Positions 21,412 to 53,200 of a DNA stretch of 64,000 nucleotides are shown here, piece after piece (the stretch's first letter is position 1; every line of letters begins with the position of its first letter). The position numbers and the translations under genes are program-made. The stretch comes from Macrocystis pyrifera (Eukaryota; Sar; Phaeophyceae; Laminariales; Laminariaceae), in assembly GCA_031763025.1 (NCBI GenBank), contig JASSKH010000010.1, positions 5,017,901 to 5,081,900 on the forward strand. Reading direction: 5' to 3'. The notes beneath the pieces were generated by a model. It ran no database searches, was not told where the DNA came from, and saw nothing but the letters and a program-made list of their open reading frames with translations.

Positions 21412-24378
21412 CTGCGCAAGGAAGGGTAGGGTAGGGTAGGGTAAAGCAAGGAAAGGTACGGTAAAGGTATTGCAGGGGAAGGAAAGGTAGGGCAGAGAAG
21501 GTAGGGTAAATGAAGGGTAGGGTGGGGGAAGAAAAAGAAAGGCAAGGCACTGTAACGTAAAGGGTAACGCACTGCAGGGTAGTGTCGGGAAAGGCAAGAC
21601 CAAAAAAAAAAAAAAAGGAGTAGGTTAGGGGAAGGCAATGTAATACAAGGTAACGCAATGCAAGCAAGCGTAAGGCAAGGTAGGGTATGGAAGTGCAAGG
21701 CGGGCGAGGGAGGTAAGAGAAGGTAAGGGAAGGGAAGACAATGAGGGACAGGCTACGCTCGGTAAAAGCAGGGCAAGGCACGGGAAGGCAGTGCAAGGCA
21801 AGTCAAGGCAAGGTCATCCGACGAACTTCGCAAAATCACGCAGTCGAACGTTGGCGCTAGCAAGGCCTTGGCCCCACAATAAAGAGCGCACCCACGCGTG
21901 GACAGCACTTTTACCTGGGAGGTGCTGTACCCGAATATGAGGGGGAAACGCTTGATGAGCACCTGCACTTCCTCCGGGGTCGCTCCGAGGCGGTCCTGCA
22001 AGAAAATTAGACAGGAACACAGTTGACCACCGCGGCAAAAACAAACAAGAGAGAGAAAAAAAAAAACATGTACTGGTACAAAGTATCAAGATTCTACGTC
22101 GACATCATCAACGCCAACCCCAACCAGCCGAGCTAACCCACCGTTGAAAAAAAACAAGAGAATATAACAAGAGCAAGATCTACGTCGAAACTTCCAACCA
22201 ATGCAAACACCAAACGCCAACAGTTCAGTTAACCCACGGCGATCGCAAAACAAAAACAGACAAGAAAGGACAGGTCCACGTCGACATCGGCATTGCAACT
22301 ACCAACAACATCGCGGATGCGTCAACATCCTGCAGCTGCACGTTCAAACGACCACCAAAATCTTGTCGCAGGAATGACCGGTCGCGCGTGATTACTTGAT
22401 CGATGCCGCAAAACCAAAAAGCCAGCCCGAAATTCTTGTGGTCTGGGTGGGGTGTACCAGAGGCTGTCTCAACGTCTGGACCTGCTCGTGTTTTCCTTTG
22501 TCTTTTGTTTTTTTCTTCCGCTCCAGGAAAAACGGACCCCGTGGTAAAGTCCACGGCCTTTACATCCATCATATGGCCATGATTTGATGCGAAAATGTTA
22601 ACAACAACTACTACAGTTGCGCACAATCGACAAGGAACTCATGTCGCTCCTACAACTGTACAAGGCAACTCGGCATAACAACCTCCCGAACTCGCCTCCA
22701 ACCATTTGAACTTGGGCTCCAAGTTTTCTTCGACACTGCGGCTGAGCACCGCAGGGTAGGTAGTGATGAGCTGTTTCGGGGAACAGACACAAAAAGACGC
22801 CGACAGACGAAACACTGAGCAACGTACACCGTCTCCCTCCGACACGGCAGAGAGGGGTGTTGCAGTCTCGTTTGAGGCGTGCCCGCACGGGGCTGGGGTG
22901 GGAAAAAAAAAACAAAGAAACATTTCGCGACCCGAGAGACAGACGGTGCTTCGAAACGAAGAGACCATCCGAGCCGGTGGTGTACATACAGCATGCACAA
23001 GTGCACATCGTGCACAACAGCAGTGCAGCTGTACTGCAGGCATACGATCCCCCTGAATTTCGACGGTAACAATTCTGCTCTAGTTGCATGTCACGAAGCG
23101 ACATTCGTCCGGTCAGATACCTAGCTTCACACAAAAATCATTGCAAGGAGCAATCGTTGTAAGGAGCAATCGTTGTGCGGAGTGGGTTTCTTCAAGGAAC
23201 ACAAATCGCTTCCGTATGCGTGATGTGGTTGCATCGACATGCCTTTCGGAGCTGCGGCTGTCCCAGGCCCAAGCGTTCCCGGAGCCACTTCGTCTTCGGG
23301 GCCACGTGAGACGTCACGCGATAAGCCATAAGCCGAGGGTGTCGCAGTACCAGCTTCGAAGGAAGAAATAAAGACAGAGAGGCATTCATGAGCGGGGAAG
23401 GGGGAGGGGTTGTGTCAGTGCGCGATTCGGTTCGAGGAATAATCTACACATCATTGTCGATGTCGTATACCGGTACAACAACTGCTGTGCTGCTGTCTTG
23501 TGTATACATAAATACCAAGTACATTACCGTTCTAGGAAAAGTCCGATGTTTTTCCCTGATTCAAACTCGGACGGGGTGCTGCAGCTGCGATACGGGGACT
23601 CGCCGCACTAAATATTTTTCTGAGCCTACTTACTACCCAAAACTGACTTCGATGAAAATTGTTGGATAATCCCGATGAATAATCTCATGGCCTAAATCCT
23701 CCCACGAAAGCTACTGTGCAACAGTAAGGCATATGCCTTAGAAGGCATTCCTTGCTGGCTAGTTCCTCAGTTGAGGAGTTCCGTCCGTCACAAATTTCGC
23801 CTCATACGGCAAAAAAAAGTGCTACGTATCCCTATCGTAGCATGCATAAAAACGGCGTTAAAATCTGCCGTGTCTTAACGTGCAGAAAACGAAAAAGTCG
23901 TAAACGAGTGTAGAAATCACTGCTTATTTTCTCGCGCTCCGTCTTTCCCCAGACACGCGATCGGAATATTGTGATGACTTAAGCGCGGAGATCGTATAGG
24001 GTCTGTATAGATGCCTAGATCACCCGCAGTACGACGTGCCGTTTGGACGACACCATATAACGGTGCCCCCGATACTAGTAAAAGATACGTGTACGACTAC
24101 GAGTCGTGTACTGCTCGACACAACGTGGGTGGCCTTTATCAACAAGTTTACATTTTCACAATGAACCTGCCGCCCCCCCCCCCCCCCCTTCGCCTCCTCT
24201 TCACCGCGATGAATCCCCCATGTGACCCCGTTCGCACTGAACGCGCACGCCTCCTTACATTCCGCATGTCGCCCAGGCTCATGTCCAACTCCTGAGTGAG
24301 CCAACCAAGCAAGGGCATAGCGGTTTCGGCTCCGAGAGTGTTGAGGGTGGGGTAGCGCTTGCTCATTTTGTTCACCTC
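21172..24378 (-). CDS. mTERF-family organellar transcription/RNA factor, 3' part (5 exons)
   Basis: Exons on the minus strand are 24378-24259, 23353-23243, 22770-22696, 21995-21915 and 21411-21172, about 208 residues to the stop. The chain is a run of mTERF helical repeats, recognisable by proline-centred blocks: VLRHPRLMAYRV, LITTYPAVLSRSVEENLEPK, VLIKRFPLIFGYS and AAVMSCPSILSRSLDKRI. mTERF proteins bind nucleic acid in mitochondria or plastids and affect transcription, splicing or ribosome assembly. Exons correspond roughly to single repeats. Two introns appear to be GC-AG (donors AAG|gcatgt at 23242 and GAG|gcgagt at 22695); GT alternatives break the frame. The acceptor before 24378 implies at least one upstream exon with the targeting peptide, not found. 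Confidence 0.9.
21420..21820 (-). repeat. purine-rich degenerate repeat (GGTAGGGTA / AAGGCAAGGTA)
   Basis: About 400 bases of plus-strand ggtaggg, aaggcaagg and ggtaagg words fill the last mTERF intron; read on the gene's strand it is a long pyrimidine-rich tract before the acceptor at 21412. Confidence 0.8.
21915..21995 (-). CDS. mTERF exon iv
   Basis: 27 codons, acceptor cttgcag, donor CAG|gtaaaa. It reads DRLGATPEEVQVLIKRFPLI and FGYSTSQ. Confidence 0.88.
22085..22345 (-). repeat. three ~88-bp tandem units in an mTERF intron
   Basis: Blocks attctacgtcgacatcatca, gatctacgtcgaaacttcca and ggtccacgtcgacatcggca start successive units that also share aacccaccg/aacccacgg. No exon lies here. 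Confidence 0.65.
22696..22770 (-). CDS. mTERF exon iii
   Basis: 25 codons, acceptor ccgaaacag, GC donor GAG|gcgagt. It reads LITTYPAVLSRSVEENLEPK then FKWLE. Joining at GAG gives WLEDRLGATPEE, the normal repeat linker. Confidence 0.85.
23243..23353 (-). CDS. mTERF exon ii
   Basis: 37 codons, acceptor cttcgaag, GC donor AAG|gcatgt. It reads LVLRHPRLMAYRVTSHVAPK then WLRERLGLGQPQLRK, which continues smoothly into LITTYP of the next exon. Confidence 0.85.
24259..24378 (-). CDS. mTERF exon i
   Basis: 40 codons, phase 0 at both ends, acceptor cattgcag and donor AAT|gtaagg. It reads EVNKMSKRYPTLNTLGAETA and then MPLLGWLTQELDMSLGDM. Confidence 0.82.
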
Positions 24379-24540
24379 CTGCAATGATAGGTGGGCCACA
24401 TTCACGAACGAGATCGAAAATAAATCAGGAACAATATGTCCTGCAATAGGTTGACCACGGCCGTTCACCAACAACAGTCTGCAACAGGTGGACCACGATC
24501 CACGAACAACGATACATTCAACACCTGTAAACCGGGGATC
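24372..24540 (-). repeat. tandem copies of an intron 3' end before mTERF exon i
   Basis: On the gene's strand gtggtccacctgttgcag, gtggtcaacctattgcag and gtggcccacctatcattgca follow one another; only the last is at the exon. Confidence 0.7.
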
Positions 24541-25499
24541 GGGGACAAATAAGCCTACTCTAAAACCTACCTATTGATAATAGTACATTACACATAAGAG
24601 AGGATGGCGAGCAAAAGGTCCAACCCCCCACCTTAAATATATACTGACTCATCGCTACAGGAGGGGCGGAGATATATATTGCACGTACGTGCCAGGTTTT
24701 TCAGACATGTACGTAAACGCAGTACGGTTGTATGTATAGCAGGAGTTGTTGTAGGTATGTATGGCCTACATGGTACCAAAAGGGATCAGGGTGCCAGGTG
24801 GGCCTCCGACGGTCCCTGCGGAAGGCTGAGCATATTTCTGCACCACTAAGTGAGAGCAGTGTGGCAATGGGATGGGCCCATTGCGGGGTCAAAGTACTAC
24901 AGTACGTGAGAACAGGGTGCCAGGTGGTATAAAACATAGGCAATGCATGTACGTGCAACTTCTCCGCTCATGTATTAACACCGGCTCGTAAAAGTGCAAA
25001 ATTTGTAAGGCAAACAATAAATGTGCTGTTTCGGAAATCGAAACAAACAAAAAAAAAACACACACACACATAAAAATACATACCACAGGTACAATAAACG
25101 TGCTGTTTCGGAAATCGAAACAAACAAAAAAAAAAACACACACACACATAAAAATACATACCACAGGTACATACTATACCCGGTATAATATTGGCGCCCG
25201 TTGTGATGTATTCGGCAAATTACTTGTCATTTGAGTGTGTTGGGAACCGAACAACGGCCCTGACAAATCATCAGACAGGGGGACAGCCCGGGACTCGATT
25301 TCAAAATTCGTGCGTGTGTTTCACACAAAGTTAACAGCATGATCACACTCCATACTCCCAAAAATCTTCAAGCATCATTTCCCCGGAGCTGCCTTCGTCT
25401 ATATCGTGGGTACTGCTGCTGTGGTACCCGCACAGAGCATATACTGGGGTTCAGCGATCCCTGTGCGCGTCGATTTTCGTCGGCCAACTCGTGTTTCCG
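24541..25499. other. unassigned; contains a ~62-bp tandem duplication
   Basis: ctgtttcggaaatcgaaaca with an A run and cacacacataaaaatacata occurs twice (25025-25085 and 25092-25155). Any upstream mTERF exons should lie here or beyond but were not found. Confidence 0.6.
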
Positions 25500-25613
25500 C
25501 TATTTCCGGGGGACCATAGTAAATAGGACCAAATATTGTTCGTAAAAAAAGAGAAAATATATAGGTTTTTGTGTATACCGTAGGTCCTATCTACTATGGT
25601 CCTCCATAAATAG
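25500..25613. mobile_element. MITE M1, copy 7
   Basis: Bounded by ctatttccgggggaccatag and ctatggtcctccataaatag. Confidence 0.9.
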
Positions 25614-26317: not shown

Positions 26318-26322
26318 CTACG

Positions 26323-26380
<58 letters not shown>

Positions 26381-26382
26381 AT
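26318..26382 (+). repeat. (TAC)n microsatellite
   Basis: About 20 tac triplets with one variant. Confidence 0.95.
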
Positions 26383-26794: not shown

Positions 26795-27160
26795 AAGAAT
26801 GACCCTACATGTAGAGTCTACCAACTTACATCGCACTTTTTATCACATTTGCTGCAAGTATTTCTGAACTCGGTACCTGGTGCTGTTTATACACCTTGTG
26901 CCGCCTATTATAAATAATATTAATACCTCGTATATCAGAAAGGTAGAACCTGTTGATTACCTTGTTTGACCTGCATACTGCAGAATAATGTACAGAACAG
27001 AATGGGCATCTCTGGTGTCATAGTTTTGCGATCGCAGAGATTGTATCTCTCTATTAATAGGATTGAAGAATCGGAACGGGCACCGGTTGGTTGTGTTGTG
27101 TTGTGGGCAGAAAGAACGGTTTCAGAAATAAATGTGAAGAATACGAGTAGACATGCTATG

Positions 27161-27525
27161 CTACTCGTGCCACAAAGTGCTGCCTGCGGCTGCCTGCAGG
27201 GTTCCTCAAGTTTTGTGTTTCGCTGTGCTTCGGTTTGCCTGTTTTTTCCTTCGGCTCTCTCGTAGTTTTCCTGTACACGCATGTGCTACTCGTGCCACAA
27301 AGTGCTGCCTGCGGCTGCCTGCAGGGTTCCTCAAGTTTTGTGTTTCGCTGTGCTTCGGTTTGCCTGTTTTTTCCTTCGGTTCTCTCGTAGTTTTCCTGTA
27401 CATGCATGTGCTACTCGTGCCACAAAGTGCTGCCTGCGGTTGCCTGCAGGGTTCCTCAAGTTTTGTGTTTCGCTGTGCTTCGGTTTGCCTGTTTTTTCCT
27501 TCGGTTCTCTCGTAGTTTTCCTGTG
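27161..27525 (+). repeat. 125-bp tandem repeat, about 2.9 copies, nearly identical
   Basis: ctactcgtgccacaaagtgc starts at 27161, 27286 and 27411; units differ at only a few bases. Since 125 is not a multiple of 3 the open frames through it rotate and are not evidence of a gene. Confidence 0.95.
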
Positions 27526-27553
27526 TCTATATCTAGGATGGTACAGCAGTAGG

Positions 27554-29513: not shown

Positions 29514-29847
29514 CCCCGGTGGCTTATTAGGTGGTCCGCGTGCCTATCAAGATCAATTTCGTGGGTTCAAGTCTCACCGAGTGCAAGCTCGTAGGGACTT
29601 TTTCTTGCATAAAAAATTGATTAGCGGAAAGCGCGAGAGCGTGAGTTAGCTACGTACATTCGATTAAAATCGACGAGCAGTGGGAATGCTGAACCCTATG
29701 CGCGACAAAAAATAAAGGTACGTACCGGGGGGGAGAAGGGACGACACCTGTGACCACGGCTTGTCCAGAAGATCGCTGAGGGTAAAACCTCCTACGAGTT
29801 AGGCTGGAAAGTAAAAGTGATGATTAAAAAAAAAAAAAAAAAAAAAA
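29514..29847 (+). mobile_element. tRNA-derived SINE with poly(A) tail, copy 1
   Basis: The head ccccggtggcttattaggtg resembles a pol III A box and gggttcaagtctcaccgag a B box. The body includes gtcgtagggac-like and ccacggcttgtccagaag blocks; it ends gtaaaagtgatgatt plus about 22 A. It shares its whole length with the minus-strand copies at 36171 and 55482. Confidence 0.9.
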
Positions 29848-32336: not shown

Positions 32337-32369
<33 letters not shown>

Positions 32370-34284: not shown

Positions 34285-34319
<35 letters not shown>

Positions 34320-35252: not shown

Positions 35253-35497
35253 ATGAGGGGGGGGCTCAACAGCGCTCGTCGAGCGTGGGTAGCGAAACGC
35301 GCCTTTGGGGTGGAACCGCAGGCAAAGACTCCGTTGATATTTGCACGTACGAGTTCGAGGACAGCTCATCATGAGTTGCCTCTCATTGGGAATGCTTTGA
35401 GAGCGCCATTTGGCACCGGAAGGGGAGGCAAGGTTGCCAGTGCTGCTTCGACAGCAGCCGAGGACGAGGAGAAAGAGGTTCTCCCGGGGGCGTTCAA
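35253..35497 (+). CDS. thioesterase exon 1 (presequence)
   Basis: First in-frame ATG at 35253; reads MRGGLNSARRAWVAKRAFGV and ends EKEVLPGAF plus two bases before gtgaga. The two bases AA plus the first base of exon 2 make lysine, so the phase fits. The link across 9 kb is inferred from phase, presequence character and lack of another candidate. Confidence 0.6.
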
Positions 35498-38400
35498 GTG
35501 AGAAGCTCGAGATGTTAGGCTGTCCGTTAGGATTTACTCTTAGAGAAAGCCAACCTGTAACAACACAAAATCACTTTTGGTGTGGGATGATACACGAAAC
35601 GGGAGAGTGGCAAATCTTCAACAAGGAACATCGGCAGTACCAGTATGCATGGCCAGGATACAGGGCAGGTGATGCGGGCTAGGCTCCGCTTCGACGATGT
35701 CGCATTCTGGTCGTACTTGGCCTTTCCTTGACTTTCGGACGACGTACGGCTGTGGTACTGCTGTGCTAAATGCTGTCCAATTCGCTGTGCGACGCCGTAG
35801 CGCTCTCTGCTGTCTCCGTAGTGGGTGGTGGGGCTAACATCATCAATAATACCGTAGACCAGACATCAGGCATACCAGGTACCTATTAATACCTGGTGCT
35901 GCTGGTACTGCTGTACCACAGCAGACAGGAACAATGGTGTATCATAGCTGAGCGTTCAAGTCGAGTGTGTGTCAAAAGTAAGCTCCGTTGGGATGCACCG
36001 TCCGTGGAGCATACAGAGACGACGCCAATCATCGCACGGGATCCAGCTGTACGTACAGCAGCAGCAGGATTCGGCTTTTCTTATTTCGGGGGACCATGGT
36101 AGGACAAAATATTGTTAGTAAAAATAGGTAAATATGTAGGTTTTTGTGTTAACGTAGGTCCTATTTACTATTTTTTTTTTTTTTTTTTTTTAATCATCAC
36201 TTTTACTTTCCAGCCCACTCGTACGAGGTTTTACCCTCGACGATCTTCTGGACAAGCCGTGGTCACAGGTGTCGTCCCTTCTCCCCCCCGGTACGTGCCT
36301 TTAGTTTTTATCGCGCATAGGGTTCAGCATTCCCACTGCTCGTCGATTTTCATCGAATGTAGCCAACTCACGCTTTCGCGCTTTCCGCTTATCAATTTTT
36401 TATGCAAGAAAAAGTCCCTATGAGCATGCACTCGGTGAGACTCGAACTCACGAAATTGATCTTGACAGGCTCGCGGACCACCTACCAAGCCACCGGGGAC
36501 GCCGGCATCTCTATGGTCCCCGGTAATAGTACTAGGAAACCATTAATAACAGAAAACGAACAAACTCAAGCCTGCGTAATGATGCAGAGGGTGCCCGCTC
36601 GGCCGTGAAAAAAAAAATGAGGCTCGTTTTCTCTCGAAATTTGCCCGAAGAACCGGCTGATGCTCAGGGTCGGGTGCCATACTATAAATATAATGATGAT
36701 CTCAGCCGTATCCGATCAGTTTTGGTCGGCGGATCTCTCTCGCCTCAGACCGTCTTTCCGCGCGGTTTCTTCACCGGGGCGTTCCCCCCTCACGCCTGAA
36801 CCCCCCGGCGTCGGAGGATCCGCCCGCTCAGCGCCGTGGCGCCCGCGCGAAGCCTTGACGTTGAGATGTCCGAAGGAATCTCCGAAAATCCCTGCCCTGT
36901 CGGTGTTTTGGGCCATGGTCTCTGGACAAACTGTAGTTGTATGCATTCGCGTGGTTCTTCCCGACACGCCCTCTCCGACCTCCGACCCATGGGGAGGGTC
37001 AGCTCCCCGGCCGGCATCGCCATTGTGGGGGCCGGCGCGGGTGGCTGTATCTGGGACATCGATGGAGCGCCCCGATAGCACATGCCACCCAAGCTTGGTT
37101 GAGAACTGCCATCCATAAAAAATTATGCGGGGGATATATGCAGTAGTGGACAAACCTTGATAGTAGATCTTCCTGGGGTAGCTAATTAGGCACTCTGATT
37201 GGCTAGGGGTATGTTTTACGCGGCTTAATCAACTTTCGAGTCTTTCCCAGCCACAGCATCCCGAGTCAACCTAGAGTCTTCCCAAGCTCAGCATCCACGC
37301 CGGCCGAGCCAACCTAGAGTCTAAACAAGCACAGCATCCCAGCACTGACCACCGGCATAGGGTTCGGGTTCGGGTTAGGGTTAGGGTTCGGGTCGGAGGG
37401 TCGGCTTCAGGCGTCGAACACAAAACCCCCACAAATTATCTACTATCAAGGTCTGTCCACCCCTCGATATATGAGAGATATCGCATGTTACCTACAGCCA
37501 GAAGCGCTTATGGTGTGTACTCTATCGTACAGCGGCAGCTGCAGTGGAGATGTACTACGTAGCTGCGGAGATGTACAGCTGCAGCAGGACTGGTACAGCT
37601 ACAGCAGCTGCTGCTGTGACGGCACCTTTTTACAGAGGTGCGATTTCCGCGACCGCGCACTCCCTGAGTTAGAAGTTAGGGTGTGTCTTAACCCCCCCTA
37701 GAGAGCATGGGAACGGGCGGAACGGAACGAGGCTGTTCGTGGTCGTTCGTTCCGTGCCTGTGTAAAAAAACGTGTTTGGGTCCATGCAGAATCCTGGGCC
37801 TCGCCAGCCGAATCAGTACGAACGGTATCTTTTGCACACGCCAGAGCACATCGGTGTCCACATCCATCCTCGGTGGTGTCCATCTACATCAAATAAGATC
37901 CTGTATGTTCCCGTTCGGTCGGGCCGTTCGGTCCTCCCAAACAAGAAAAAGGGGTGCAACACTTCTTCTTCCTCTTCCTAGATATACAGTTTTTCTCGGG
38001 CTGCACTGAATCTATTCGTTTCCCACAACCAATCAGCATCAATTCATGCAGCAAATATTATTCCATCCGGTTCGTTCCAATGCTCTCTGGGGGGGGTTAA
38101 GACACACCCTTACACCGCCTTCTAGGATTCCGCCGCTTTTCGGTTGATCGGCGAGTAATCGTCAGCATTCTGCCGCCTTTTCGAACGTTCATGAAGTGTG
38201 GAGCCCACACTCTTACGAAATCTCTTTTCATCGAGTCTCCGCCTCCTCCTCCACTGCATTGCACGCCCACCACGCAAGTCTGTGACTGACCGGCGGCCGT
38301 TTAGGTCGCCGGCATAGCCCCTCGGCATAGCCCCTCGGCATAGCCCCTCGGCATAGCCCATACCTGGTACCGTAGCCGAAGAGTACGAGCTGGACCAACC

Positions 38401-41400
38401 AAGCCTCTGCCACAACCGTTTCTTGACCATGGCGCGCACACTTTTACCAATTTTCCCCGTGAAATTTTGACACGGCGTTTGTTCATGCAATAAAGTACAC
38501 GTTCGGTCCCACCCTTTTTTTTCTTGTTTCTGCGCGAAAAATGTCGAGGGTTGCTTAATAGACCAACAGCTGCTGTATTATGGGAAGAAATTGAAGGACT
38601 CTACTAAGACCTATGACAATGGGAACGCGAAGTTGAAAGTTTTCTTTCGAAAATATTCCCGTCAAGAAACAGCCGAAGATATTCTCGTACCGCTGCTGTG
38701 GGAAGAAGGGGATTAACAATGAATTGCAAAAAAACGGCTGCAGGCGACGCAATTTTTTTTTTCTCGTTGCAAAGTGTCAACACGCTGATAAAATAAACTC
38801 GTGCGACGATAGACCTTTGATTTCGACATCGACTCAGCCCACGGCCAACCCACTTCGTGTGGGGTAAGGCCAACGAGTGTGGATGACGGCATCGAAGATA
38901 TCAGGTGGATCCATGGTCGAGGGGTCGAAAGCTTGCCGGCGGCGTCCTGCGCTCTTCTCCCAAACCTGAAAAAAACTATTTTTCACCATTCGAGATGGAT
39001 CTAGTAATTTTGTCATCTATTTTGGGCTCACCAGTTGCCAATTGTTTTTTAATCATACGCCTGGCCAGCGCCCGCCACATATCACCAGTCATTGCGTAAA
39101 CAAGGTGACCCTTGGGTCGGTCGGAGCCCCTAACGAGCGCACTACGTTCATATTTCATGACGCATTCGTTGGTTTTGTCGATCGGTGTCTGTTGAGGACT
39201 CGGAATCTCACCGCTTCGAGCTAAATATCCGCCTGAGTTTTCTGGAGCTGATCTTGGCCCAACATCGACCCCAGAATTGTTTTTTTGCGGGGTTTTCCAA
39301 AAAAGGTAGGAACATTCGGTTCGAAGAATCGTGCTCATAGCAAGCTGTGCATGAAATATTATGGTGGGTATCTTTGGAATTCAAGTTTTTTGTGGGAAGT
39401 TTGCGGTTCCATTGGCATAGGTCTAAGAACTTTTTTTTTTTTGCCGAAAACCCGCGATTTACTCGGCGAGACTGTCAAAAACACCGGTAGACTCCTCGGG
39501 ATGCTCTCCTTTGTTTTCCGAGAGCTTTCTGGAGCAGTTTTCGGTTAATCCCGAGTCGTAATTTTTACTGTTTGTCCGTATTTGCCAGTTCTGAGGACAT
39601 GATGCTTTTTCACCAAAAATCTTCAAAAGACCCATCCATTATGTATGGCCCGAGTTCTGGCAAACAATCTTATGTTTGACCCTCCACAGAAAAATTATTG
39701 GCTGCTCCAAAAAATCAAGCTAGGAATCTGAAGAAACGGAAAACTGCTCCAGAAAGCCTTCGGAAAACTCCGGGGGGCATGCAGGGGAGTCCAGCGGGGT
39801 TTTTCTCTGTCCTGCCGATTATAACGCATATATTCGGCCGAAAAACTCAGTTCCTGGAGCCCAGAAATGATTTCTCATGGTAGGTGGTCTTCCTACGTAT
39901 TCGAGAAAATGGTTGACACACACTGTGTACGAGACGGATAGAACTACTGTAACCCTAACCCTATAAGCCAATCAGAGCAACCCTGGTCCTGGCCCTAAGC
40001 CATTCAGACCGAATCTCGAAAAAGTAGTGAGCTCTGCAGGAAATATGATCAGTTCAACGCCCCGAAAATTGAAAAAACGGACAAAACTGACCTGAGAAGA
40101 AACTAGAAAACGAAAAAGGCCGGCACTCAATAATCTTGTACGCGCCCTACTGACAAATACGGGGTCAAACTTCAGATCGAAATTCGACAAATTGAGCGCG
40201 GAATCGCAGAAAAAATCCGTATTTCTCGGTACTACTTCTTTGATGTAAGGGAATCGTTTTTTTTTTTTTTTTTTTTTTTTTTTTTGTGATGTCTCTAGAT
40301 AGGTGTCGATCGGAGCAATAAAACTGATACCGATCGTCTTCTTGTGTCTTCAGCATTGTCTACCCCAATTTTTACCGCGATTGGAAACGATGAGGTTTGG
40401 ACCTGTCATCCTATTGTCGTCCGGAAATTATTGTCGAAATGCCGGCAAAACGAAAAAGGTACTGCTGAAGCCAATTATTATGCCGTCCGATTTGCAGTCC
40501 GTTGAAATAAAAACTTTCAGCACGATCGCATGAGCTTTTTCCCCGGAAATATTGGAAATTGGTTTTCCCGCCTCAGAATGTGTCGGATCTCTCTCCAAGG
40601 TCTACTTGGGGGTGTTTCTCGCTTCTGCAGGCACCCAGATACAGGAAATTGCCGTCCCCACTTTTTCGATCCAACTGGGTCAAACACGATCCAAACCCCC
40701 GATCGGATCGAAAAAAACGTATTTTGCGATCAGATCCCCGATCGCAATCTGATTCACCTCATCTGGATCGACAAAGTGCCGACAGCAGTGATTTCTTGCA
40801 ACCGGGCCCGTCGAGAAGCGGGAAACGCCCCCAGATAGATCTTGGAGAGAACCCCGACACATTCTGAGGCGAGAATGGCCAATTTTCAACCTTTCCGGGG
40901 CAAACGCTCATGCGAAGGTGCTGAAAGAGACTTTATCAAGTGAGTGCGAGTCCGACTGCATAAGAATTGGCCTGAGTATTGTTTCATACCTCGGCGACAT
41001 CGACTCGGATTTCTATTTTTTTTTCAAGAATAAGCATGCACACAATTGTGTCCTAAGGTCGGTTCTTCCAATTTTGACGTCCAACTCGCAAAGGTGGTGC
41101 TGTTTTTCGCAGGCCGAAAAGTCATCACATTCGTGGCTGGCCCAGCTCATGGCCTGTGCTAAATGGAGGCAACTACAGTAGATGAGAGATCGAGCCTCGA
41201 TACCAAATTGGCTTTGCTTCCTACTTGTGCATAGCGGGCGCCTTCTGTGCCTGGAATGCTATGTACGGGGAAGCAGGTATACGAACCCCGCAATGCAAGG
41301 GTTAGGGTCTTCTTTCAAGGCACTCTAGGATTCTCCGACGCAGACTTAAGGGGAGGTGGTGTCACCGTGTCATGGTGTCACGGTAAGGGGTCTGCGCAGA

Positions 41401-44400
41401 AGAAGCGCGCTCAGCTTTCGTTTCGGTCCGTGAAAATCTCTGTTAGAATTGTTGCGGTTCTCGTACTGCTGTAAAAAAAAACACCACAGACGCAAGTGAA
41501 CATAAAAGAAAAAAGATCTACGAGGACGCTGCTGTGTTGCCCGATACGCACGATAAAAGACTACATCTTGTGCGCACAAAACGTGAACATTTTTTACGTC
41601 CGGGGTTATTTCTCAGGGACACGCAGCAGGTACGCAGAACTAGAAAAGGTCGCCGCGTTCATCAGTTGGCCTAGGTGTGACCTAAGTATGATACCACCGA
41701 ACCCCCCAATATGCTGAATCAGGACAACGGCCAGCTTTTCCCTTTCCCCGAAGGTCAGCTTCCCAGGAGTCGGGCGCTCGTCATGGTATGATATGCTTGA
41801 TAGGGGGCGGACCCGAAGGAGGAGTAGCCACCCGTCCAAACGAGGGGGAAATTGGACCGCGTGTTCACTCTCACAACTAAACTTGTATTAGTAGCAGCGA
41901 AATAAGCCTACACATAGAAGTACTACGCGGCACCGATTTCAGCACCACGCCCCTTTCACACAGCGTACATTCAGCGTAAGAGCGGGCGGTGCCGCGGGGA
42001 TCTGCAAGGACAATTCCGTGGCGTGGAGGCTGCCGTGGGATCGACTCTTTGTGGCATTCTCCGACCCCACGTCTGCCGTCGGACTTCAACCGAATCGCCA
42101 CTCAACAGCACAACTCCACAACTCCTGCTACGCTGACAACGCGATCTCCATTACATCTATTAATAAGAGCCTACGGGATGAGATGTTTCTGGGGGAGTTG
42201 GGTTGTGGAACGCGGCGACTTCTCGAACATATCCTGGAGACTGGAGAGGACATAAACTGGGCTAGTCGCACACCATTTTTGGCCATGGCAAGGCCCCCGG
42301 CCAGAAATTTCCACACAGACCACCAAGGAGCACACTTATTTCAGAGCAGGTGTACGGAAGGAGGCTGATCGCACTCGTGCCTTCTACTGCTGCCATTGTG
42401 CCGTAAAGAGAGATGACCAGAGACTGCCTTCAAGGGGAATATGTAACGTGTGTGATCTGGTTGCATCCAGTGCGATGTTGAGCTGATATTCGATGAACTT
42501 TTCGCAACCATTGTAATCAATCGGGATCTTATTGGTCCTGGCCGCTGACGGCATGGATGACTGATTTTGTAACCGACGCGAAAAGTAGTCATGTTTTCAA
42601 AACAAAACGGGAGCGCAGGGATTTTTTTACGGGACCCCCCCCCCCCCCCCCCCCCCCCCTAATACATAGCGGTCGCCTTGTGTGCCTGGAGTGCCATGCA
42701 CGCGGGAGAAGGCTTACGAACCCCGCGCTGTAGGGCCTGGGTTGGTTTCTAGCGCACTGCGGTAGGCTTCTCCGACGCAGACTTGAAGCAACTGGTTGCT
42801 GTACAGGAAGCGCTAGTAACAGTACGGCGGCGGAACTCGAAGTAACTGCTGTAGGCTGACCTGCCACCTTCAACTCTCAACCCTTAACTGCTGTGCCTTT
42901 CGCGTCGGGGTGCTCTTATTGGTACACATTCTAACAGCTTTGAGTCGACAGGATTCCATGGGTGCTATCTGATCGGTAGGCGCCGTCCGCCAACCAGCTG
43001 ACGCTAGTCGGCAAGTTGGCTCCGGTAGATGGCCCGCGGGCTTGCGGACTGTAAGCGAGAGCCTGATCAGCCCTCCCCGGCCGACGGGGGCCCGCTATAA
43101 AAAAAACTAATCTGTACCGTATCCGTCAATTAACAATCCTTCCTACTGTCCAAGTATGGAAACCCAAATAAGGCGGATGGTCGGCACCTCCAGGGAACGA
43201 CTAACCATTAGTCTGACTAGCAACTACTAATGGTAGATGAGTTAAGTCGTGCCGACTCACAGCTTTGCTGATCTTGCCTTGATGACCGGGGGGAGGGGGT
43301 CGATTTTGCTGTTTCCCCGCCCTTATCACGGCGGCGATTGCAGTCGCAAGCAGATTCGACACATCTAACTCGCCACAGCGTATCCCCATCGCTACAGCGT
43401 GTCCCCACGGGTGAGAAAATAAGGTTCACTTTTTGGTGGAATCTTGAAAACATACGGATTAAAAAAAAAAATAATTCAGATAAAAATAGAAAAGTAAACA
43501 AAATTGGGCTTTTTGCGTTTTTTTTTGCAACGTGCATTTCGATCCTAGCGGAGATGATTCTTGAACGTCCCCTGTTTTACCCGTCATTTCCCGTGAGCGA
43601 CCCTTTCGCTGGTCTCCTGGCATGGTCGCAAGACCTATTGTCGCCGCAATCCGACATCGTGCTCAGCGGCGAGCGCTACGATTGGTCCTATATGGTAGCC
43701 TATGCTCAAGGTTGTTCAGGAATAGTGTCGCAATAAGGTTCTCAGGCTTGCCCATACTAATGGTACGTAGGCGTTTCTTGCTGCTGCGACTTACGGGTGC
43801 TTTCTTTTAATATAGCTGTTGTATACCGCTGTGTCCGTAAATGTTAGCGTCTATCGGGTGTATTATTTATGGCCTGAGTACCCCGTCGGCCCTTACGCCC
43901 CCGGACAGAGCGACGTATGATCATCCCTGCGCCGCTTTTGGATTATTGCGGCATGCTCAGATGCTCAGTGGCATTCATCGCGACACCAAATTCACATCTA
44001 CGTCAAAGTACACCTGGTAGTTTTACGGGGTCCCTTCTCATAATACTGGAACCACATGGGGGCCACACGGCATTCCATATTTGTTGTACTGAATTATCAT
44101 GTTTGGGCACTTGGGGTTATCGTAAAGGCGGCCCCAGTGGCTGGATGGGCTCGGAAACAGCGGGGAACTGAAAAGAGGATTCACCACCTCGTTTCGAGTG
44201 TTGAATTTCGCGCATTGAGTTTTGAATGCTGATCTTTCGAGCGTTCACTTTCAAACGGAAAGTCCAGAGTGAGTTTTGCGCGATGTTTTTCTGTTGTTGC
44301 GATCGAGTCTCCAGCCGAGCTACAAGAACGTTGCTGTTACTGCGTGTTTTCGCACAAGCTCGCGTACTGCCCTTATTTGGGGTCATCTTGCAGACCTTCA

Positions 44401-47219
44401 ACCATTTTACCGCGTCTGTCCTTTTTGCCCGCGCATCCGACTCCTCTGGCCTCTTGCTCCGGTGCCACCACCCCCTGTTGTTGCAGGTCTCCTATCACGA
44501 AAGCGCTGTGGGAGATCCGCCGAGCTGAGATGAAGTTCCAGGTAGAAAAATGCCGCCTGGCAATAGAAACCCAGCGGTTCTTGTGGACGTTGTCGTGTCG
44601 CCGACCAATGGAAGCACCTGAGCGTTGCGCTCGAGCTTCGCGATTGTGCGTGCATACGAGTACTAGTGCGTCGCTTTTGAGCGTAGTCTGTGTGCGTAGC
44701 ACTTGTAATGTAGCACACGTAGCGCTTGTGCGTAGCGCTTGTAGGTGGTACTCGCGCGTGGGTAGCGCTCATGCGTAGCGCTTGTGCGTAGCCCTATGCG
44801 AATGATTCAAGCGCGGCACTTACGCGGGGGAAATGTTGGTGCTTGTGCGGAGGGAGTGCCTGCGCGTGCGTAGCATGCAAGATGCGAGCCCGGAGGGCGT
44901 GTGGTCGAAGCGCTTATCCGTACCGCTTGTGTGTGGTACGTGCGGACAGCACGCACGTAAGGGGTTGCACTTGTGCGTTAGACCTTCTAGGACTGCACTC
45001 CCGTCTCGGGGACAAAGCAGTCAAGTTCTCGAGTGATATCGTCTCCCCGAAACGGGACCCCAGTCGCAAGCGGCTTAGTACGTCGGATGCGTTTGAGGTT
45101 AAGTGTAGTGTAGTGTGAGGTAGAGAGGTGCATCTATTTTTGTTTCTGAGGCTCCTCACTGAGGAGGAGATCTGTACCCCACCCAAAAAAAGCGACGAGG
45201 TGAAAATGAAGGGGCAACCGACTCAACGAGCAGGCAGTCCCAAGGCGGCCAAGGTATGTCTAGAAGTAATATTGGGAAAAAAAAATCAGGCGATACGATG
45301 GTTTGGATAATAGTTGCACTATTACGGAGGGCCGCAGTAGATAGGACCAAATATTGTTAGTAAAAATAGGTAAATATATAGGTTTTTATGTATACCATAG
45401 GTCCTATTAACTATGGTCCCCCGTAATAGTTCCTCGGTGCTGTCAGTGTCCTTTCGAGGAGCCCCGTCAGTCAGAATTTTTGCCTCAGAAGGCAAAAATA
45501 AGTGCCGCCCTCATGGTGGCGATTGCGCGTGAAAATGTGCATGTATACACCCGGTATGCGTACGAAGCACCTCGGCGGAAGCACTTGAGGCGTAATTATG
45601 TACACGATGCGAGGCCTGAGGGCATGCTGCGATCATGCACGGTCGCGAGAGCGGCGCTGACAACGGTATCGAATTGTATCGCTCGCATGAACATCGTCGT
45701 GTATCGCGGCTGGTGAGCAGCTTGTCGGGGAAATGCACCGATTTTTTTGTTTGTTTTGTTTTCTTCTGGTGGGTCGACCGTATGTCTCTCTCCCCTTGCG
45801 CCACAGGAAACGCGCCGAGAGGCCGGAGGGAAAAGTCCGTCGGAAGACCTCCGGGCCGTACCCCCGTCTCTCAGCCGCAGCGCCATCCACTACCCCTTTT
45901 CCACCGACTCGTTTCTTCGAGAAGATTACCGCAATCCTTCAGGCCTTGTACGGGTAAGTAGGCGTGTGGCCAGGGACCAGGTTAGGCCCTTTTCTGTTTT
46001 TTGTGGGGGGGTGTAGGCGTGGGCTCCAAGAGCCTATAGGGGGCGCGGCGTCTTGGAGGGGGGAGGAGGGGGGGGGGGGGGGGTGTACTCATGATATGCA
46101 TGGCCGTAGTCGTATGACCATAGAACCTCGCATCCCTACAATGCTGGGGCGGAGCGGCGGGGGGTAACGCGTAGGAACTCCGTAGGCTCTCGGAGATATT
46201 TTTGGTCCAGATTCGATGAGAGCCATGCGTTAATCTACTTCCCCTTGATCTTGGTAGTATTTTCTACTGTAGAAAAGACCCCAACGCAAAGCCCCCACGT
46301 GGATCGTCGTCTCCACTAATATGTGTGCACTTTCTCTACTCTCGGAAAACGATCCTACTCTGCTTCTACAGCGAGAAAATGTTTTGCCCCCAAAACTGGG
46401 ATGGGAGTATGGGAGTTGAGCGGTAGCAAGCCTCTCCAGAATGTCGAGTCGGTTTTTGTGGTGGAGTGACGAGCCACTCGTCCACGAGGCACGTGGTCGC
46501 GGGTCTCCGACGCTTTAGGAAAACTCTTCAGGTGTGGAGAGGGGTCAACGTGAACTGAAGTGCTCTGAAATATTTCCCTTGCCAGAGAGTTTCTTTGTTG
46601 CCTAAGTGATGTTTCAACACCGGGTGTATATAGGAACTATCGTTGTTTATTGATATGCTGTCTGAGAGGAGTTCGTTGTCGGTAAACGGCGTTCTTTGTT
46701 GTACAATGGCGTTCTTGGTTGCTGAATCTCATGCTTTGTTGTCGGTAATCGGCGTTCTTTGTTGTAAAATGGCGTTTTTTGTTCTTTGTTGTGAAATGGC
46801 GTTGGTTTGTTGCCGGTCGGTAAATGTTGCGGCTCTTCAGATTGGGCGAATTCTGGAAGATCTGGACGCTTTGGCGGGAAACATCGCGTTCAAGCACTGC
46901 TCGGAAGACCCCTCCTTCCCCCTTTTGGTCACCGCCTCTGTGGACAGGCGAGTGAAACCCCCGATAACAACTCAACCCACCCGACTTCACCGCTTCGAAC
47001 TTGATACCAGCACCTACATTTTGATGTGTCTTACCGGTGTTCCTTGATGCTTGCGTCGTATCGATACGTACGTATGCTGTGTGCTGCAATAGCTATCCCA
47101 CCTCGGAAACATTCGTACGGTAGTAGAGTTGCAGGGCCTGCATATGCGACCATTTCTGCTTTCGGCCCCGGGGTCGGGCATGGGACATGTCGGTCTAAAA
47201 AAAGGTGAGGCTTTACGGT

Positions 47220-47266
<47 letters not shown>

Positions 47267-50200
47267 GAGATGGGAGACGATTCTATTCTTCTGATCCCGC
47301 CTTGTCCCGCCGGATTGCTTGAAGTCTGCTTGAAGCTATTTTAGGGGGCTCGTGAGTGCCCACGCTCGTGCTTCTGAGGCCGCTGGCTCACTCTTTGTAT
47401 CTCCTGCCTCTCCTTGTTTGGCACAACGCCTAGGGAGAGAACCGAAGCTTCTGAATGATGAACTGTCACTGTGAATCATTCACCCCTCGCACAGATCATC
47501 ATCTAGGTCGTCCTCGTACGTAGATCCTAACCTGCCGTTCTGAGGCACTGCTGTGCAGCGTCTGTATAGTACAGATCCAACCCAGGGAAAAAAAAAAACC
47601 CAGATCATGCAGAATATATGACTTCCACCCGGCAACGTGAGCTAGACGATACAGATCATACAGACTATATACAGATCAGGGATCTATCTATCTATCCGCC
47701 CTGAAATATCTAGATCAGGGAGTGGGAATGATCTGTAAATGATCTGTAAATGATCTGCAGATGATCTGTGCATGGTCTGTCCGAGGTGTGAAATATTTTT
47801 TGTGTGTGTGTATTAGTAGTGTTTATTGGGCTATTAAAATTGACACACGACACCAATTTTGAACGTGGAAGTGTGGTGAGCTTAAGTTTTATTTTTACCA
47901 ATCCGCCGGAGAATAAAAAAAATGAATAAAAAAATATTTTGTCCACGGATAGACTGCCCGGGTACTGTCCAAAACAGTGTTTTTTTGTTTGCCTCCTTTT
48001 TTTCCTTTTTTTTTCGTCCTTTCTTTTCCTCCTTTTTTTCCTACCCTGCTTTCCGTTTTTTCTTTCTTCTTTATTTTTTCCTAAACTTTTCGAAATGGGG
48101 TTGTTTTTTTTCTTGCGTCCGTTGCAGGATCGTTCTCAAAAGGCACCCGCGGCTGGACTGCGACATGACCTTGATGGGGAGAGTGGTGTGGACGGGAAGG
48201 TCTTCGATGGTCATCAACATGAGGCAAGGCGTCGCCCCCCCTTTCCCAAGCCCTTGCACTCTATTCGGGTGTGGGAGTGCTGCAAGCGCCATCCGATACC
48301 TGCTGCCGGTGTACTCTACTCGTACCACGGGGGACCATAGTAAATAGGACCTAAAGTACACACTAAAACCTATATAGATACAACTATAATTACGATTTTT
48401 GAGGTCGTTGTCACTTGCTAGCTCTTGGCAGACAGACCGACTGCTAGACAGCTCTTCGCAAACAGCCCTTCTTCTTTGAAACAGCCGAACAGCCGAACAA
48501 CCTTTCTTCTTTCTTCTTCTCCAAACAGCCAAACAACCTTTTCTTCTTTCTTCCTCCGCAAACTGCCAACCAATAGACAGCTCTTCGCACGGCGCCTAAA
48601 AAAAGAGGCTTCTCGCCTTCGACGAACGGCATAGATAGGTGCAGCTGTCGGCGGCCAAGCTGCTGCTGTCGGTGGCGAACCTGCTGGTGCTGCAACCCCC
48701 GCCTCTCCCTTCTCCACGCCCCCTAAGCTCGGTCCATAGTTAACAGGACCTATGGTGTACATAAAAACCTATATATTTAACTATTTTTACTAACAAATTT
48801 TGGTCCCGTTAACTATGGACCCCCGTAATAATAATATTTGGTCCTATTTACTATAGCCCCCTGTAATAGTTAGTCAGTGTGGTATCATTGGTGTGCAAGT
48901 GCAAGAGGGGGGAGTACGTGGATAATTTTCTCTAGTTTTAGTGCTATCGCCGGGGTTGGTGTCTCCTGGCGTAGTTTCGTTGTCATCATCGTGGTGCTTC
49001 GGTTCGAATTTTTGTCGTTTTTTTTTCGAGACGAGTGAGCCCCTACCCTAGCTCGCACGTGGAAAATGTGTTCACAACTGTCGGTGCAGCTCTGAGCAAG
49101 TCCGCGAGAGTCGACTGGAAGTCTTGTCCGTATCGCTCGCGGAGGGAAAGCAGAAGTTGGACGCTGTCGGTCGCAATGATGGCGATGCTTGCGACCCTGC
49201 GCGCATGCATGCGTGGTGGTAGAAAGCGTGAGCGCAGTAAAAGTGGAGTCTCCAGCTACTGTAGTCGAGGGGGGAAAACGGTACGAACCAGGATCAGATG
49301 TGCCTGGTGAAAATACTGGAATATATTTTGTTTTTGTGCGTGTGATGGGTCCTAATCACTCTTAATATGGTCCTCCGTAATATTGTATGCCATTATGTAC
49401 CTTAATATAGTGATCAATGGTATTACATATTCATACATAAGTATTGCTTGTGTTCCGGGACAGAGGGGTAGGTGGTGGGTGCTATTCTGCAGGGGGAGAC
49501 ATGGGAGCCGTGCTCTTCTATTTTGTTGCGTCCCCCTCGGTTTAAGCTGTTGCGCGAGCCTGAGACACAAGCGTCTCCTCGGGCGCTCCGCAGCACTCGT
49601 ACCGGCGAACCCTTTCAGTCTCAAAACGCTATTTTAATGCCGAACCTCACACTTTCCAGTAGCAAAAATTTGCCCTTCTAGAACATCGACCAATAGGAAA
49701 ACTCAGGGCACTTGATACGTTGCTTTTGTTAGACCTAGCGGCAGCAACGTTTCGGACTCAAACAACTTGAAATTCGTGTTGGGTGTGTTTTGAAGTACGA
49801 TGACAAATGGGTCAACAGCGTTGATACTCTTGCTACCCCCCGCTGTTTTGTCGTAATTCCCTACTTTGGCAGGTGTTCATCGTCACCACCGGGGGTTTGC
49901 TATGTAGGAGGGGATCTGTGGGCGGACGACGACAGCTGCTGGCTAGACGCCAACTTCACTTTCGTTGCTCGAGACAGGTACGGCACGTGGGAGCTTATAT
50001 AGACTTGGGCGTGCCCTCGCCGCGCGCGCGCGGGGCGGGGGGGGGGGGGGGGGGGCGTACTCATTTGTTGCTTGCCTTAGGCATTTGACCATTGACCACG
50101 CATCCCTTTCGAGACGGAGCGGGGGGGGGGCGAGTAGGTTTCTTGGTTCCACCTCAGGTACATTTTTTTGAATTCCTTTTTTTTTATTACGGGGGTCCAT

Positions 50201-53200
50201 AGTTAACAGGACCTATGGTGTACTTGAAAACCTATATATTTGCCTATTTTTTATAACAAAAATTGGTCCCGTTAACTATGGACCCCCGTAATAGTGCTCT
50301 TTTTTTGTCAAGAGCGTTCCTTGCTGATCTCCTTGGTGGAGTTCGCCCTCTCCCTTGCAGTGCATGTTGACTGCAGACTCAAAATGGTTTCCGTTGTGCA
50401 AAGAGCGTTCGTAGAAGGGGACACGTCTAGGCCATCCCCTCGATCAACGTGGGCTCTGTCGAACTAGAGCGCCCCTCGTCTACCCCCCCCATCACCCCCA
50501 CCGTGCGGTAGAAACCCCTCCATAACTACACCTCTTTTTTAACGGACAAACTAGTTGGAAGTGAGTGTAGGATATTTTTCATGATAGTACGTTATTTAGT
50601 CTTTCGTTTTTTCCTGAGCTTTTTCTGCGTGACGGTGACGGTGCGAGGCACTTCAACTTGTTGAATGCTGTATGAGCAGCGGTTTCACACGGTGTCCAAC
50701 ACAAGAGCCCCGTCGTTTCTGTCTTTGCAGTGCGCTTGGCCTTGTCCTCTTTCGGTCTTGTCCGCTCGCTGTTCCTTTGGCCCCGCGTGTTGTCGCGGAC
50801 GTTGACCTTAACGCTTCTAATCCCCCCCAGGCGTAGTGCTCTGTTTGGGTACAAACTCAGTCCATCCCGGGGGGGTGTTGCCGAGTACATTTTTTTTCTA
50901 GATGGATGTATCGTTTTACTACTGCAAGAACTCTACGTATCTCTGATTCCGGGTAGTTCGGACCCGAAATATTATCGGAGTACTTATTTTTCTAAAGGTT
51001 AAAAACAAAACATTCGTTTCTTTTTTCTCGGGTGTACGTTGTCGGTGCTCGCGCTCAAGAGAGACTGGTCGAAGCCGCGCCGTCAGCCCTCTCACTCTCG
51101 GAAGCAACCCTCTCCAACAAAGTTCAGGGGATGGCGTCGGCGATTCGGGCTCCAAAGAGACAGACCCGGAGGATGGCTGGAGGGCCATCTGGAGGGTGGT
51201 GCAGAAGCACAAGGACCGGCAGGCTCTCGAGAGAAAGGCTGCCAAGGAGGCAAGAAGATTTCGAACCGTGGGCCGATACAGTTTGGACTGCCTGGACCGA
51301 TACAGCCTGCTTCCTTGAATAGTTTGGAACACGCGGGGTTCGCAAAACGAACGCCGCTCTGATTTGCGATATTTTCTGTGGCTTTTGCAGCGTAGTTTTT
51401 TTTCTCTGCAAACGAGGCTGCAAAACTGGAAGTTCTCGAGTGCTAGCTGAGGAGCTACTGTAGTGTTTGTCGCGTCTCCCCACCCTACGAAACGGCGGCC
51501 GGTCAGCTTTCGGAACGGTTCGACTGCCCCTGACCGCGACATCTTTGCGCCGACGCCGTCAACACCTCCTGTTTATACGAAGCACGAGCTGTTGTACTGA
51601 TTTATGGCAAGGGTGGTTACCCGAAACGTGCGAACTGTTTTTTCTTCACTTGCCAGTACGGTAGCACGTGCTCCTTGTCGTGTGAACGTCGCGTGCGAGC
51701 CATCGACCGGAGAGCGCGGCCACGAACCTGAACTTGACACGTATACCATCCGGGATTGTTTTGTTGGCAATAGCGGGAGGCATCGTTGAGGACATTGACA
51801 GCACATTTTATGCGGTAGCCGTAAATACCTATAGATGTCGTTCGGCGCGTGCCGCGTGCAAGGCATGTGAAATGCGCACCGACACGCCAATTTAACAAAC
51901 CACGCAAGCATGTAGCGGGAGGGGGGGGGGGGGGGGGGGGGGGCACCTGTTGCCACGGCTTGTGAAGGGGGACGGGTGTAAAAACGCATGGGAATTGAGA
52001 TTCAAAATAAAACGTGACCTAAAACAAACAAAAGTATAAAAATCAACCAACCGACCAAGCAAACTAAGAAACAGCCCAACGAATAAACACCCAATCAAAC
52101 AAACAAACAGGTGACCGAAAAGAAAACAACTACTAAGGAGGAAAGAAACACACGGGACCCTCTGTCCTATCTGCCTGTCTTGCGTGAGCAGGGTGCAGGA
52201 CACGAGAAGTTCTCGGAGCTTGAGGCTGCGAGGGCGAAGAGGGAAGAAGAAGCGCTCAAGCTCGTCGCCGCTGGCTTCCCGCTGCAGCACCTGCCAGCCC
52301 TTGCGGACCCGCATGCCGTGCTCGTGCGACAAACGGTAAGGCAAGAGCCGATGACTTGACACAAACTAAAAACTAGCTGCAGATTGTTCTGCCAATGGAC
52401 CCCCCCCCCCGACGGTGCTTCGCACGCTTGGTGAAAACTCGACGTGAAGCAACGTCTGCCTGGTCGGTGAAAACTCGACGTGCTCCGTCCCGGCAATATA
52501 GAGATGCGACGGTCTATGGTCATACGGCTGCGGTCATGCATGACATGGATACCCCCCTCCCCGTTTAACGGCTCGCTCTTGCGGCGGAGTACTATTTGTA
52601 TACTTCCTTGTTGATGGTAGAGTCGGCGATGTTCTGTGACCTCGTTTTTCTTCGTTCTTATCCTCACGTCATCCTTTGCTTGCTTAGTTCCCGGGGGCTC
52701 GTGCGCAGTGCATTTGTGTAGACCGCGGGATGCAGAAGGGCAGCGCGTCATCTCCACGGTTCTTTATCGGAAGTTGCAAAGCGACCCTCGCGCGCGCGAA
52801 AAAAAAAACCGTCGCGATAAACGGCCGTGGGAGCGAGCCGTGCAGGAGTAAACCTCGTGATGCTTCGGGTGCGTTTGTGCATCGTCTGGGCGATTTTCAA
52901 GACGCTTGAAGAAGCCGCCCCAGTAAAGTTACCATGCTTTATCCCGCGCACGATGCTCATGCCTAACGCCCCCCTTCAGCTGAGTGTTGTCTTTCTCCCG
53001 CACACGATGCCCCCCGCTTGTTGACATGTCTTCAAAACCGCCCAGGCGGTGTCGTCAACCCTGATCTGCATGCCCCAGCACCGCAATACCGCTAACCGGA
53101 TCTTCGGCGGGTTCCTGATGCACCGGGCCTACGAGGTCGCCTTTTGCGCCGCCTTCATGTTTGGAGGGTCGAGACCGAGATTCAGCGAGATCGACGAGGT

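What the first reader, a model, noticed from the sequence alone, without database searches (positions are those of the whole stretch)
21915..51265. GC-AG introns are far too common
Of 24 introns deduced in three genes, four need a GC donor to keep frame and family alignment: 23242 (AAG|gcatgt), 22695 (GAG|gcgagt), 46948 (CAG|gcgagt) and 48224 (GAG|gcaagg). A fifth (51250, GAG|gcaaga) is likely but has an in-frame GT alternative. All carry strong flanking consensus (AG|GC(A/G)AG). In most eukaryotes GC-AG introns are near 1% of the total. This suggests a spliceosome or U1 pairing tolerant of GC in this lineage.
Basis: partly seen in the sequence, partly recalled or inferred. Interest (0 to 1): 0.75.

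Follow-up and report, generated by a model that had tools for sequence, protein, structure and literature searches.

The report
Common GC-AG introns in a kelp
In a 64 kb piece of brown-algal DNA, five of 23 introns start with GC instead of the usual GT; relatives support the intron borders and ordinary splicing explains them, but so many in DNA of average base composition is unexpected and may mislead gene models.

Summary
The window is brown-algal nuclear DNA, most likely a kelp (closest ACOT protein: Laminaria digitata). I re-derived 23 introns in three genes: a GH5 exo-1,3-beta-glucanase (8), an mTERF (4) and an ACOT9-type thioesterase (11). ORFs of relatives that run past the same exon ends reveal their donors: GT at both mTERF sites (3 of 3, 2 of 2), mixed at the first ACOT site (1 GC, 2 GT), GC at the other two (2 of 2, 3 of 3, Ectocarpus included). 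So the borders are right and GT/GC exchange at +2 is real. Five of 23 is 22% (95% CI 7.5-44%), against about 1.1% in animals, fungi and plants. A special U1 is not supported: GC donors have stronger flanking U1 complementarity than GT donors, the compensation known from mammals. High GC-AG shares are known in GC-rich Aureococcus, Micromonas pusilla and Emiliania; this window is 49.5% GC. Six published brown-algal ACOT models fail more often at these GC junctions than at GT ones. No RNA or genome-wide count was available, so the true kelp share stays open.

The parts
21175..24378 (-). mTERF-family gene, five exons found (24378-24259, 23353-23243, 22770-22696, 21995-21915, 21411-21175); upstream exons not located
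   Evidence: Pfam mTERF E 1.8e-22 on spliced exons; relatives P0121-P0124, P0135, P0142, P0155; junctions
22771..23242 (-). GC-AG intron mT-2, AAG|GCATGT ... AAACAG|CTC, 472 nt
   Evidence: Border supported by GT at the same exon end in P0135, P0142, P0123; 3 in-frame GT-AG alternatives within 45 nt, each inserting 14 or more residues
21996..22695 (-). GC-AG intron mT-3, GAG|GCGAGT ... TTGCAG|GAC, 700 nt
   Evidence: GT at the same exon end in P0155 and P0124; 22 in-frame GT-AG alternatives within 45 nt, six printed, one of which keeps the length but replaces DRL by ASS with an acceptor inside the exon; no relative's next exon was seen
35497..61024 (+). ACOT9-type double-hotdog acyl-CoA thioesterase gene, 12 exons located (the first ends at 35497, the last coding stretch near 61024); earlier N-terminal exons not located
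   Evidence: Brown-algal homologs P0001-P0006; tblastn exons; Pfam 4HBT E 7.8e-9; junctions
46948..48127 (+). GC-AG intron AC-3, GACAG|GCGAGT ... TTGCAG|GATC, 1180 nt
   Evidence: P0129 reads DR|RVK (GC type by likeness to the window), P0133 DR|Y and P0146 DR|end (GT type) at the same place; P0002 and P0003 splice exactly there; no in-frame GT-AG alternative within 45 nt
48224..49872 (+). GC-AG intron AC-4, ATGAG|GCAAGG ... GGCAG|GTGT, 1649 nt
   Evidence: P0149 and Ectocarpus P0003 read NM|RQA, so C at +2 (Gln is CAR); P0004 splices NM-R-CSTS exactly
51250..52191 (+). GC-AG intron AC-6, AAGGAG|GCAAGA ... GAGCAG|GGT, 942 nt
   Evidence: P0153, P0154 and Ectocarpus P0003 read on with Ala (GCN); P0004 and P0005 splice exactly there. 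The in-frame GT at +18 would insert six residues absent from both
650..11165 (+). GH5 exo-1,3-beta-glucanase-like gene (start and end approximate), nine exons found, eight introns all GT-AG (comparison gene); 5' part lies before the window and the 3' end is not settled
   Evidence: PDB phmmer match to glucan 1,3-beta-glucosidases, best E 4.2e-16; Pfam Cellulase E 0.002, below its cut-off; junctions

Best explanation
These are ordinary U2-type introns whose donor has GC in place of GT. The major spliceosome removes them: the mismatch with U1 at +2 is offset by strong pairing on both sides (AG before the cut, G at +5) and by CAG acceptors. The state changes one intron at a time: two (mTERF) have GC here and GT in every relative seen, one is GC in one relative and GT in two, and two are GC in Ectocarpus and other relatives too and so may be old. 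The share of GC-AG introns in this kelp is probably several times the usual 1%, although the DNA is only about 50% GC. Shown: the five GC donors, their borders, GT/GC difference between relatives, compensating flanks. Inferred: splicing in vivo, use of an unmodified U1, direction of change, and the genome-wide share.
For: Borders and states. Count and statistics. Compensation in flanks. Alternatives enumerated. Precedent for compensation and GT>GC drift in mammals: PMC2490688. Precedent for high GC-AG shares: PMC3033335, PMC4028052.
Against: No RNA evidence. All five lie in two of three genes; the GH5 gene has 0 of 8. The sample is 23 introns from one window chosen for the pattern, so a genome-wide share of 3-5% with a lucky cluster is not excluded (P = 0.005 at 5%). 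Two of the five have GT in all relatives seen (3 of 3 and 2 of 2 ORFs). mT-3 has 22 in-frame GT-AG alternatives within 45 nt. P0002 (Sphacelaria) does not align cleanly at AC-4 and AC-6, and P0001 (L. digitata) at AC-3, AC-4 and AC-6, so their states there are unknown. Micromonas RCC299 shows that the share can differ widely between close relatives (2.7% against 22.2%).
Confidence: 0.72

Rival explanations
1. The introns are real GC-AG introns, but the genome-wide share is ordinary (1-3%); this window is a chance cluster that the reader noticed because it stood out.
For: The window was flagged for this very pattern; all five fall in two genes; the third gene has 0 of 8.
Against: P(5 or more of 23) is 4e-6 at 1.07% and 3e-4 at 2.7%, so very many windows would have to have been read. 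Relatives carry GC at three of the same sites.
Confidence: 0.23
2. The lineage has a changed U1 snRNA, U1C or U6 that accepts GC as well as GT.
For: Only the apparent abundance of GC donors.
Against: GC donors are stronger in their flanks than GT donors, which a GC-adapted U1 would not require; GT remains in 18 of 23; relatives differ, GT or GC, at the same sites. No U1 gene could be examined (no Rfam match in the window).
Confidence: 0.04
3. The exons are misread: true donors are GT sites nearby.
For: In-frame GT-AG pairs exist near four of the five sites (3, 22, 0, 3 and 7 pairs within 45 nt for mT-2, mT-3, AC-3, AC-4, AC-6). Ectocarpus model P0003 carries extra residues there (RQAS, ASRCYAL).
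Against: For mT-2, AC-4 and AC-6 the pairs printed insert or remove many residues; those at AC-4 and AC-6 are not shown by P0004 or P0005. For mT-3 the closest printed pairs use acceptors inside the exon. Relatives have GT or GC at exactly the same exon ends. AC-3 has no alternative within 45 nt.
Confidence: 0.03
4. GC donors mark regulated or inefficient introns (alternative splicing or retention), kept for that use at the two sites shared with Ectocarpus. This is compatible with the best explanation.
For: GC donors are linked to alternative splicing in human, nematode and Arabidopsis (PMC2490688); AC-4 and AC-6 are GC in Ectocarpus and other relatives; two models labelled Ectocarpus sp. 12 differ at exactly these sites.
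Against: Model differences are more simply gene-finder artefacts; no expression data.
Confidence: 0.15

Closest known systems
GC-AG introns of the major (U2-type) spliceosome (1.07% of introns over animals, fungi and plants; PMC7072748, passages)
   Same: GC for GT at the donor, AG acceptor, stronger flanking consensus, exchange with GT between species
   Different: Share here 5 of 23
GC-AG-rich algae: Aureococcus anophagefferens 39.6%, Micromonas pusilla 22.2%, Chlorella 7.7% (PMC3033335, passages)
   Same: High GC-AG share in an alga; Aureococcus is an ochrophyte, as brown algae are
   Different: Those three have the three highest genomic GC contents of 61 species (69.5% and 65.9% for the first two), which the authors hold responsible; this window is 49.5% GC
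Emiliania huxleyi: 56% GC-AG among 241 hand-mapped junctions (PMC4028052, passages and one section)
   Same: GC donors under-called by ab initio gene models, normal AG acceptors
   Different: 65% GC genome; RT-PCR of 13 junctions there, none here

Membership tests
GC-AG introns of the major spliceosome | GC at +1/+2 and AG at the end of the intron | tested here: met
   5 introns, borders
GC-AG introns of the major spliceosome | Flanks closer to CAG|GYAAGT than in GT donors | tested here: met
   6.2 against 5.0 flanking pairs, p = 0.004; AG and +5G in 5 of 5 against 3 of 18
GC-AG introns of the major spliceosome | Exchange with GT at the same site in relatives | tested here: met
   GT in relatives at mT-2, mT-3, AC-3
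GC-AG introns of the major spliceosome | Spliced in vivo at that border | not testable with these tools
   No RNA data; some annotated relatives splice there
Genome with raised GC-AG share (Aureococcus type) | Genome-wide GC-AG share far above 1% | tested here: inconclusive
   5 of 23, CI 7.5-43.7%; genome tool did not complete
Genome with raised GC-AG share (Aureococcus type) | High genomic GC | tested here: not met
   Window 49.5%; Saccharina latissima 49.84%, six assemblies in that table 49.66-53.59%, column heads not seen (PMC12116465)
U12-type introns | Donor RTATCCTTT (recalled) | tested here: not met
   No GC donor resembles it (by eye); Ochrophyta reported without minor introns (PMC10639083, passages)

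The most novel reading that the evidence does not exclude
Brown algae, with genomes of about 50% GC, use GC donors in 10% or more of their introns. The usual explanation by genomic GC would then fail for this lineage, some GC donors would have lasted since before kelps and Ectocarpus separated, and present brown-algal gene sets would be damaged wherever such introns lie.
Probability: 0.33. Interest if true: 0.6.

Novelty: new member of a known kind. Interest (0 to 1): 0.42.

Why it matters
If the share holds genome-wide, it separates GC-AG abundance from genomic GC and gives a lineage in which gain and loss of GC donors can be followed across species. In practice, the six brown-algal models of this gene that I compared align cleanly at 5 of 15 GC junctions but 24 of 31 GT junctions, which suggests that gene finders should be run there with GC donors allowed.

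Tried and rejected
Rejected: a special U1 (flank test); nearby GT donors (and relatives); U12-type introns; high GC content as the cause in this window. Pseudogene as the reason for odd donors: the mTERF exons found are open; the ACOT gene has one frame break, at an A run in its last exon and far from the GC donors, which could be an assembly error.

Papers: ten searches were answered. No title or abstract start in their listings gives a GC-AG share for brown algae; I opened passages or sections of nine papers, none of which gave one in what I saw. I did not see the Ectocarpus or Phaeoexplorer genome papers, and the library holds open-licence papers only, so a published figure may exist.

Limits: the junction table counts cells that are not independent; several 'not clean' GT cells are plain divergence or a chance alignment (Undaria at AC-1); P0001 and P0002 are marked partial, so contig ends may explain some breaks; the true donor of each species is unknown in most cells. 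The four DNA motif counts are background only and were not used. The inference at P0129 (second Arg = CGN) rests on likeness to the window; P0146 is read as a stop after AGG because the protein ends there. Species of the lgn/ena ORFs are unknown, so they may repeat one species, and that they are genomic is inferred from their running into introns. Introns upstream of the first exons found, and a possible further donor at the end of the last GH5 exon (CAG|GTTAGA near 11165), are not counted.

Full report
What the window is. The window is 64 kb of eukaryotic nuclear DNA at 49.5% GC. Of the 23 introns deduced, 22 are 0.47-4.1 kb long and one is 9.0 kb. Spliced exons of the ACOT gene match brown-algal proteins best: Laminaria digitata P0001 (84% identity over 86% of the query in local alignment; 97% in the multiple alignment), then Sphacelaria, Ectocarpus, Undaria and Hapterophycus. 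Laminaria is a kelp of Laminariales, and Saccharina latissima, another kelp, has 49.84% GC (PMC12116465, passages). The source is most likely a kelp; the species is not established.

Genes and introns. Three genes carry deducible introns. (i) A GH5 exo-1,3-beta-glucanase-like gene (+): eight introns, donors at 770, 1790, 2533, 4256, 5410, 6297, 7620 and 9680, all GT. Its identity rests on PDB matches to glucan 1,3-beta-glucosidases (best E 4.2e-16); Pfam Cellulase was below its cut-off. (ii) An mTERF gene (-): donors at 24259 (GT), 23243 (GC), 22696 (GC), 21915 (GT). (iii) An ACOT9-type thioesterase gene (+): eleven introns, donors at 35497, 44541, 45953 (GT), 46947 (GC), 48223 (GC), 49977 (GT), 51249 (GC), 52335, 53198, 57369, 59314 (GT). 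The total is 23 introns, 18 GT and 5 GC. Exons before 24378 on the mTERF strand, before the window start in GH5 and before the exon ending at 35497 in ACOT were not found, so their introns are uncounted.

Are the GC borders right? For each site I used two kinds of outside evidence. First, annotated brown-algal proteins: Ectocarpus P0004 joins exons exactly at AC-4 and AC-6, Undaria P0005 at AC-6, Ectocarpus P0003 and Sphacelaria P0002 at AC-3. Second, ORFs of relatives run past the exon end, and their next residues reveal the donor. At mT-2 three ORFs (P0135, P0142, P0123) continue with Val (GTN, so GT). At mT-3 two (P0155, P0124) continue with Val. At AC-3 P0129 continues RVK as in the window (GC), P0133 with Tyr (GT), and P0146 ends (GT, if a stop). 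At AC-4 P0149 and the Ectocarpus model P0003 continue RQ (CAR, so C at +2). At AC-6 P0153, P0154 and P0003 continue with Ala (GCN). So in other species GT occurs at three of the five exact places, and GC at three (AC-3 in both lists). This supports the borders without relying on the look of the donor.

Alternatives. Within 45 nt of both ends, in-frame stop-free GT-AG pairs number 3, 22, 0, 3 and 7 for mT-2, mT-3, AC-3, AC-4 and AC-6 (up to six printed per site). For mT-2 all three insert 14 or more residues; for AC-4 they drop or add eight or more; for AC-6 those printed add residues from ARRFRT onward, absent from P0004 and P0005. For mT-3 the choice is less clean: one printed pair keeps the length and replaces DRL by ASS, using an AG inside the exon as acceptor. 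I saw no relative's next exon there, so mT-3 rests on the GT of P0155 and P0124 at the same exon end and on the better acceptor.

Is it more than chance? With a base rate of 1.07% (animals, fungi and plants together in PMC7072748, passages) the chance of 5 or more in 23 is 4.0e-6; at 2.7% 3.2e-4; at 5% 0.005; at 10% 0.07. The exact 95% interval is 7.5-43.7%. The window was put forward because of the pattern, so the figures overstate the case, and the three genes are uneven (0 of 8, 2 of 4, 3 of 11).

Mechanism. Counting Watson-Crick pairs with the standard U1 end (recalled) outside +2, the GC donors have 6, 6, 7, 6 and 6 (mean 6.2) and the 18 GT donors a mean of 5.0 (Mann-Whitney p = 0.004). 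AG at -2/-1 together with G at +5 occurs in 5 of 5 GC and 3 of 18 GT donors (Fisher p = 0.0017). This is the pattern reported for mammalian GC donors, where the rest of the site adheres more closely to consensus and inferred GT>GC changes outnumber the reverse 298 to 40 (PMC2490688, abstract and Findings). The simplest account is the ordinary U2-type spliceosome and one-base drift at strong donors. A U1 suited to GC would predict no such compensation. I could not inspect kelp U1.

What is known. Raised GC-AG shares are on record: Aureococcus anophagefferens 39.6%, Micromonas pusilla 22.2%, Chlorella 7.7%, against 1.3% of all introns examined, with high genomic GC held responsible; but the authors find the correlation weak apart from these three, and Micromonas RCC299 at 64.1% GC has only 2.7% (PMC3033335, passages and outline). 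In Emiliania huxleyi 56% of 241 hand-mapped junctions were GC-AG, and ab initio models under-called them (PMC4028052, passages and one section). Aureococcus is an ochrophyte, so within the wider group the feature is not new. In plants, positions of Arabidopsis GC-AG introns align to GC-AG in 9,830 and to GT-AG in 13,045 sequences (PMC7072748), so both conservation and exchange, as seen here, have precedent. The listings of my ten answered paper searches showed no share for brown algae.

Effect on published models. Comparing six brown-algal ACOT proteins with the window's exons, junctions that are GC in the window align cleanly in 5 of 15 present cells (3 absent), junctions that are GT in 24 of 31 (11 absent); Fisher p = 0.008 (the junction at 35497 was not included). 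Examples: L. digitata P0001 and Ectocarpus P0004 begin at or just before the exon that follows the AC-3 intron, P0001 and Undaria P0005 depart at AC-4, and Ectocarpus P0003 carries RQAS at AC-4 and ASRCYAL at AC-6. Cells are not independent, some GT failures are divergence, and P0001 and P0002 are marked partial, so this is a lead, consistent with the Emiliania precedent.

Verdict. The GC-AG introns are real at the level of sequence evidence (about 0.95). A raised genome-wide share is likely but unproven. A modified spliceosome is unlikely. The kind of feature is known; what would be new is its abundance in a lineage of average GC.

Noticed in passing
window 60832-61024: The last coding exon of the ACOT gene changes reading frame at a run of A, whereas the models of relatives have one continuous frame. 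It may be an assembly error in a homopolymer or a broken allele.
   Followed up: no
window 29514-29799, 36217-36498 and 55554-55610: Copies of a repeat in both orientations whose translation reads DLLDKPWSQVSSLLPP; probably a transposable element, with copies inside two ACOT introns.
   Followed up: no
window 35498-44486: The first deduced ACOT intron is about 9 kb long and contains repeats; the next longest intron is 4.1 kb.
   Followed up: no
window 6290-7056: A long low-complexity trinucleotide-like tract (poly-Val, Ser or Thr depending on frame) lies in a GH5 intron; poly-G runs occur at about 46060, 47220 and 50030.
   Followed up: no
window 27159-27533: Three tandem copies of a 125 nt unit, 93-100% alike.
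   Followed up: no
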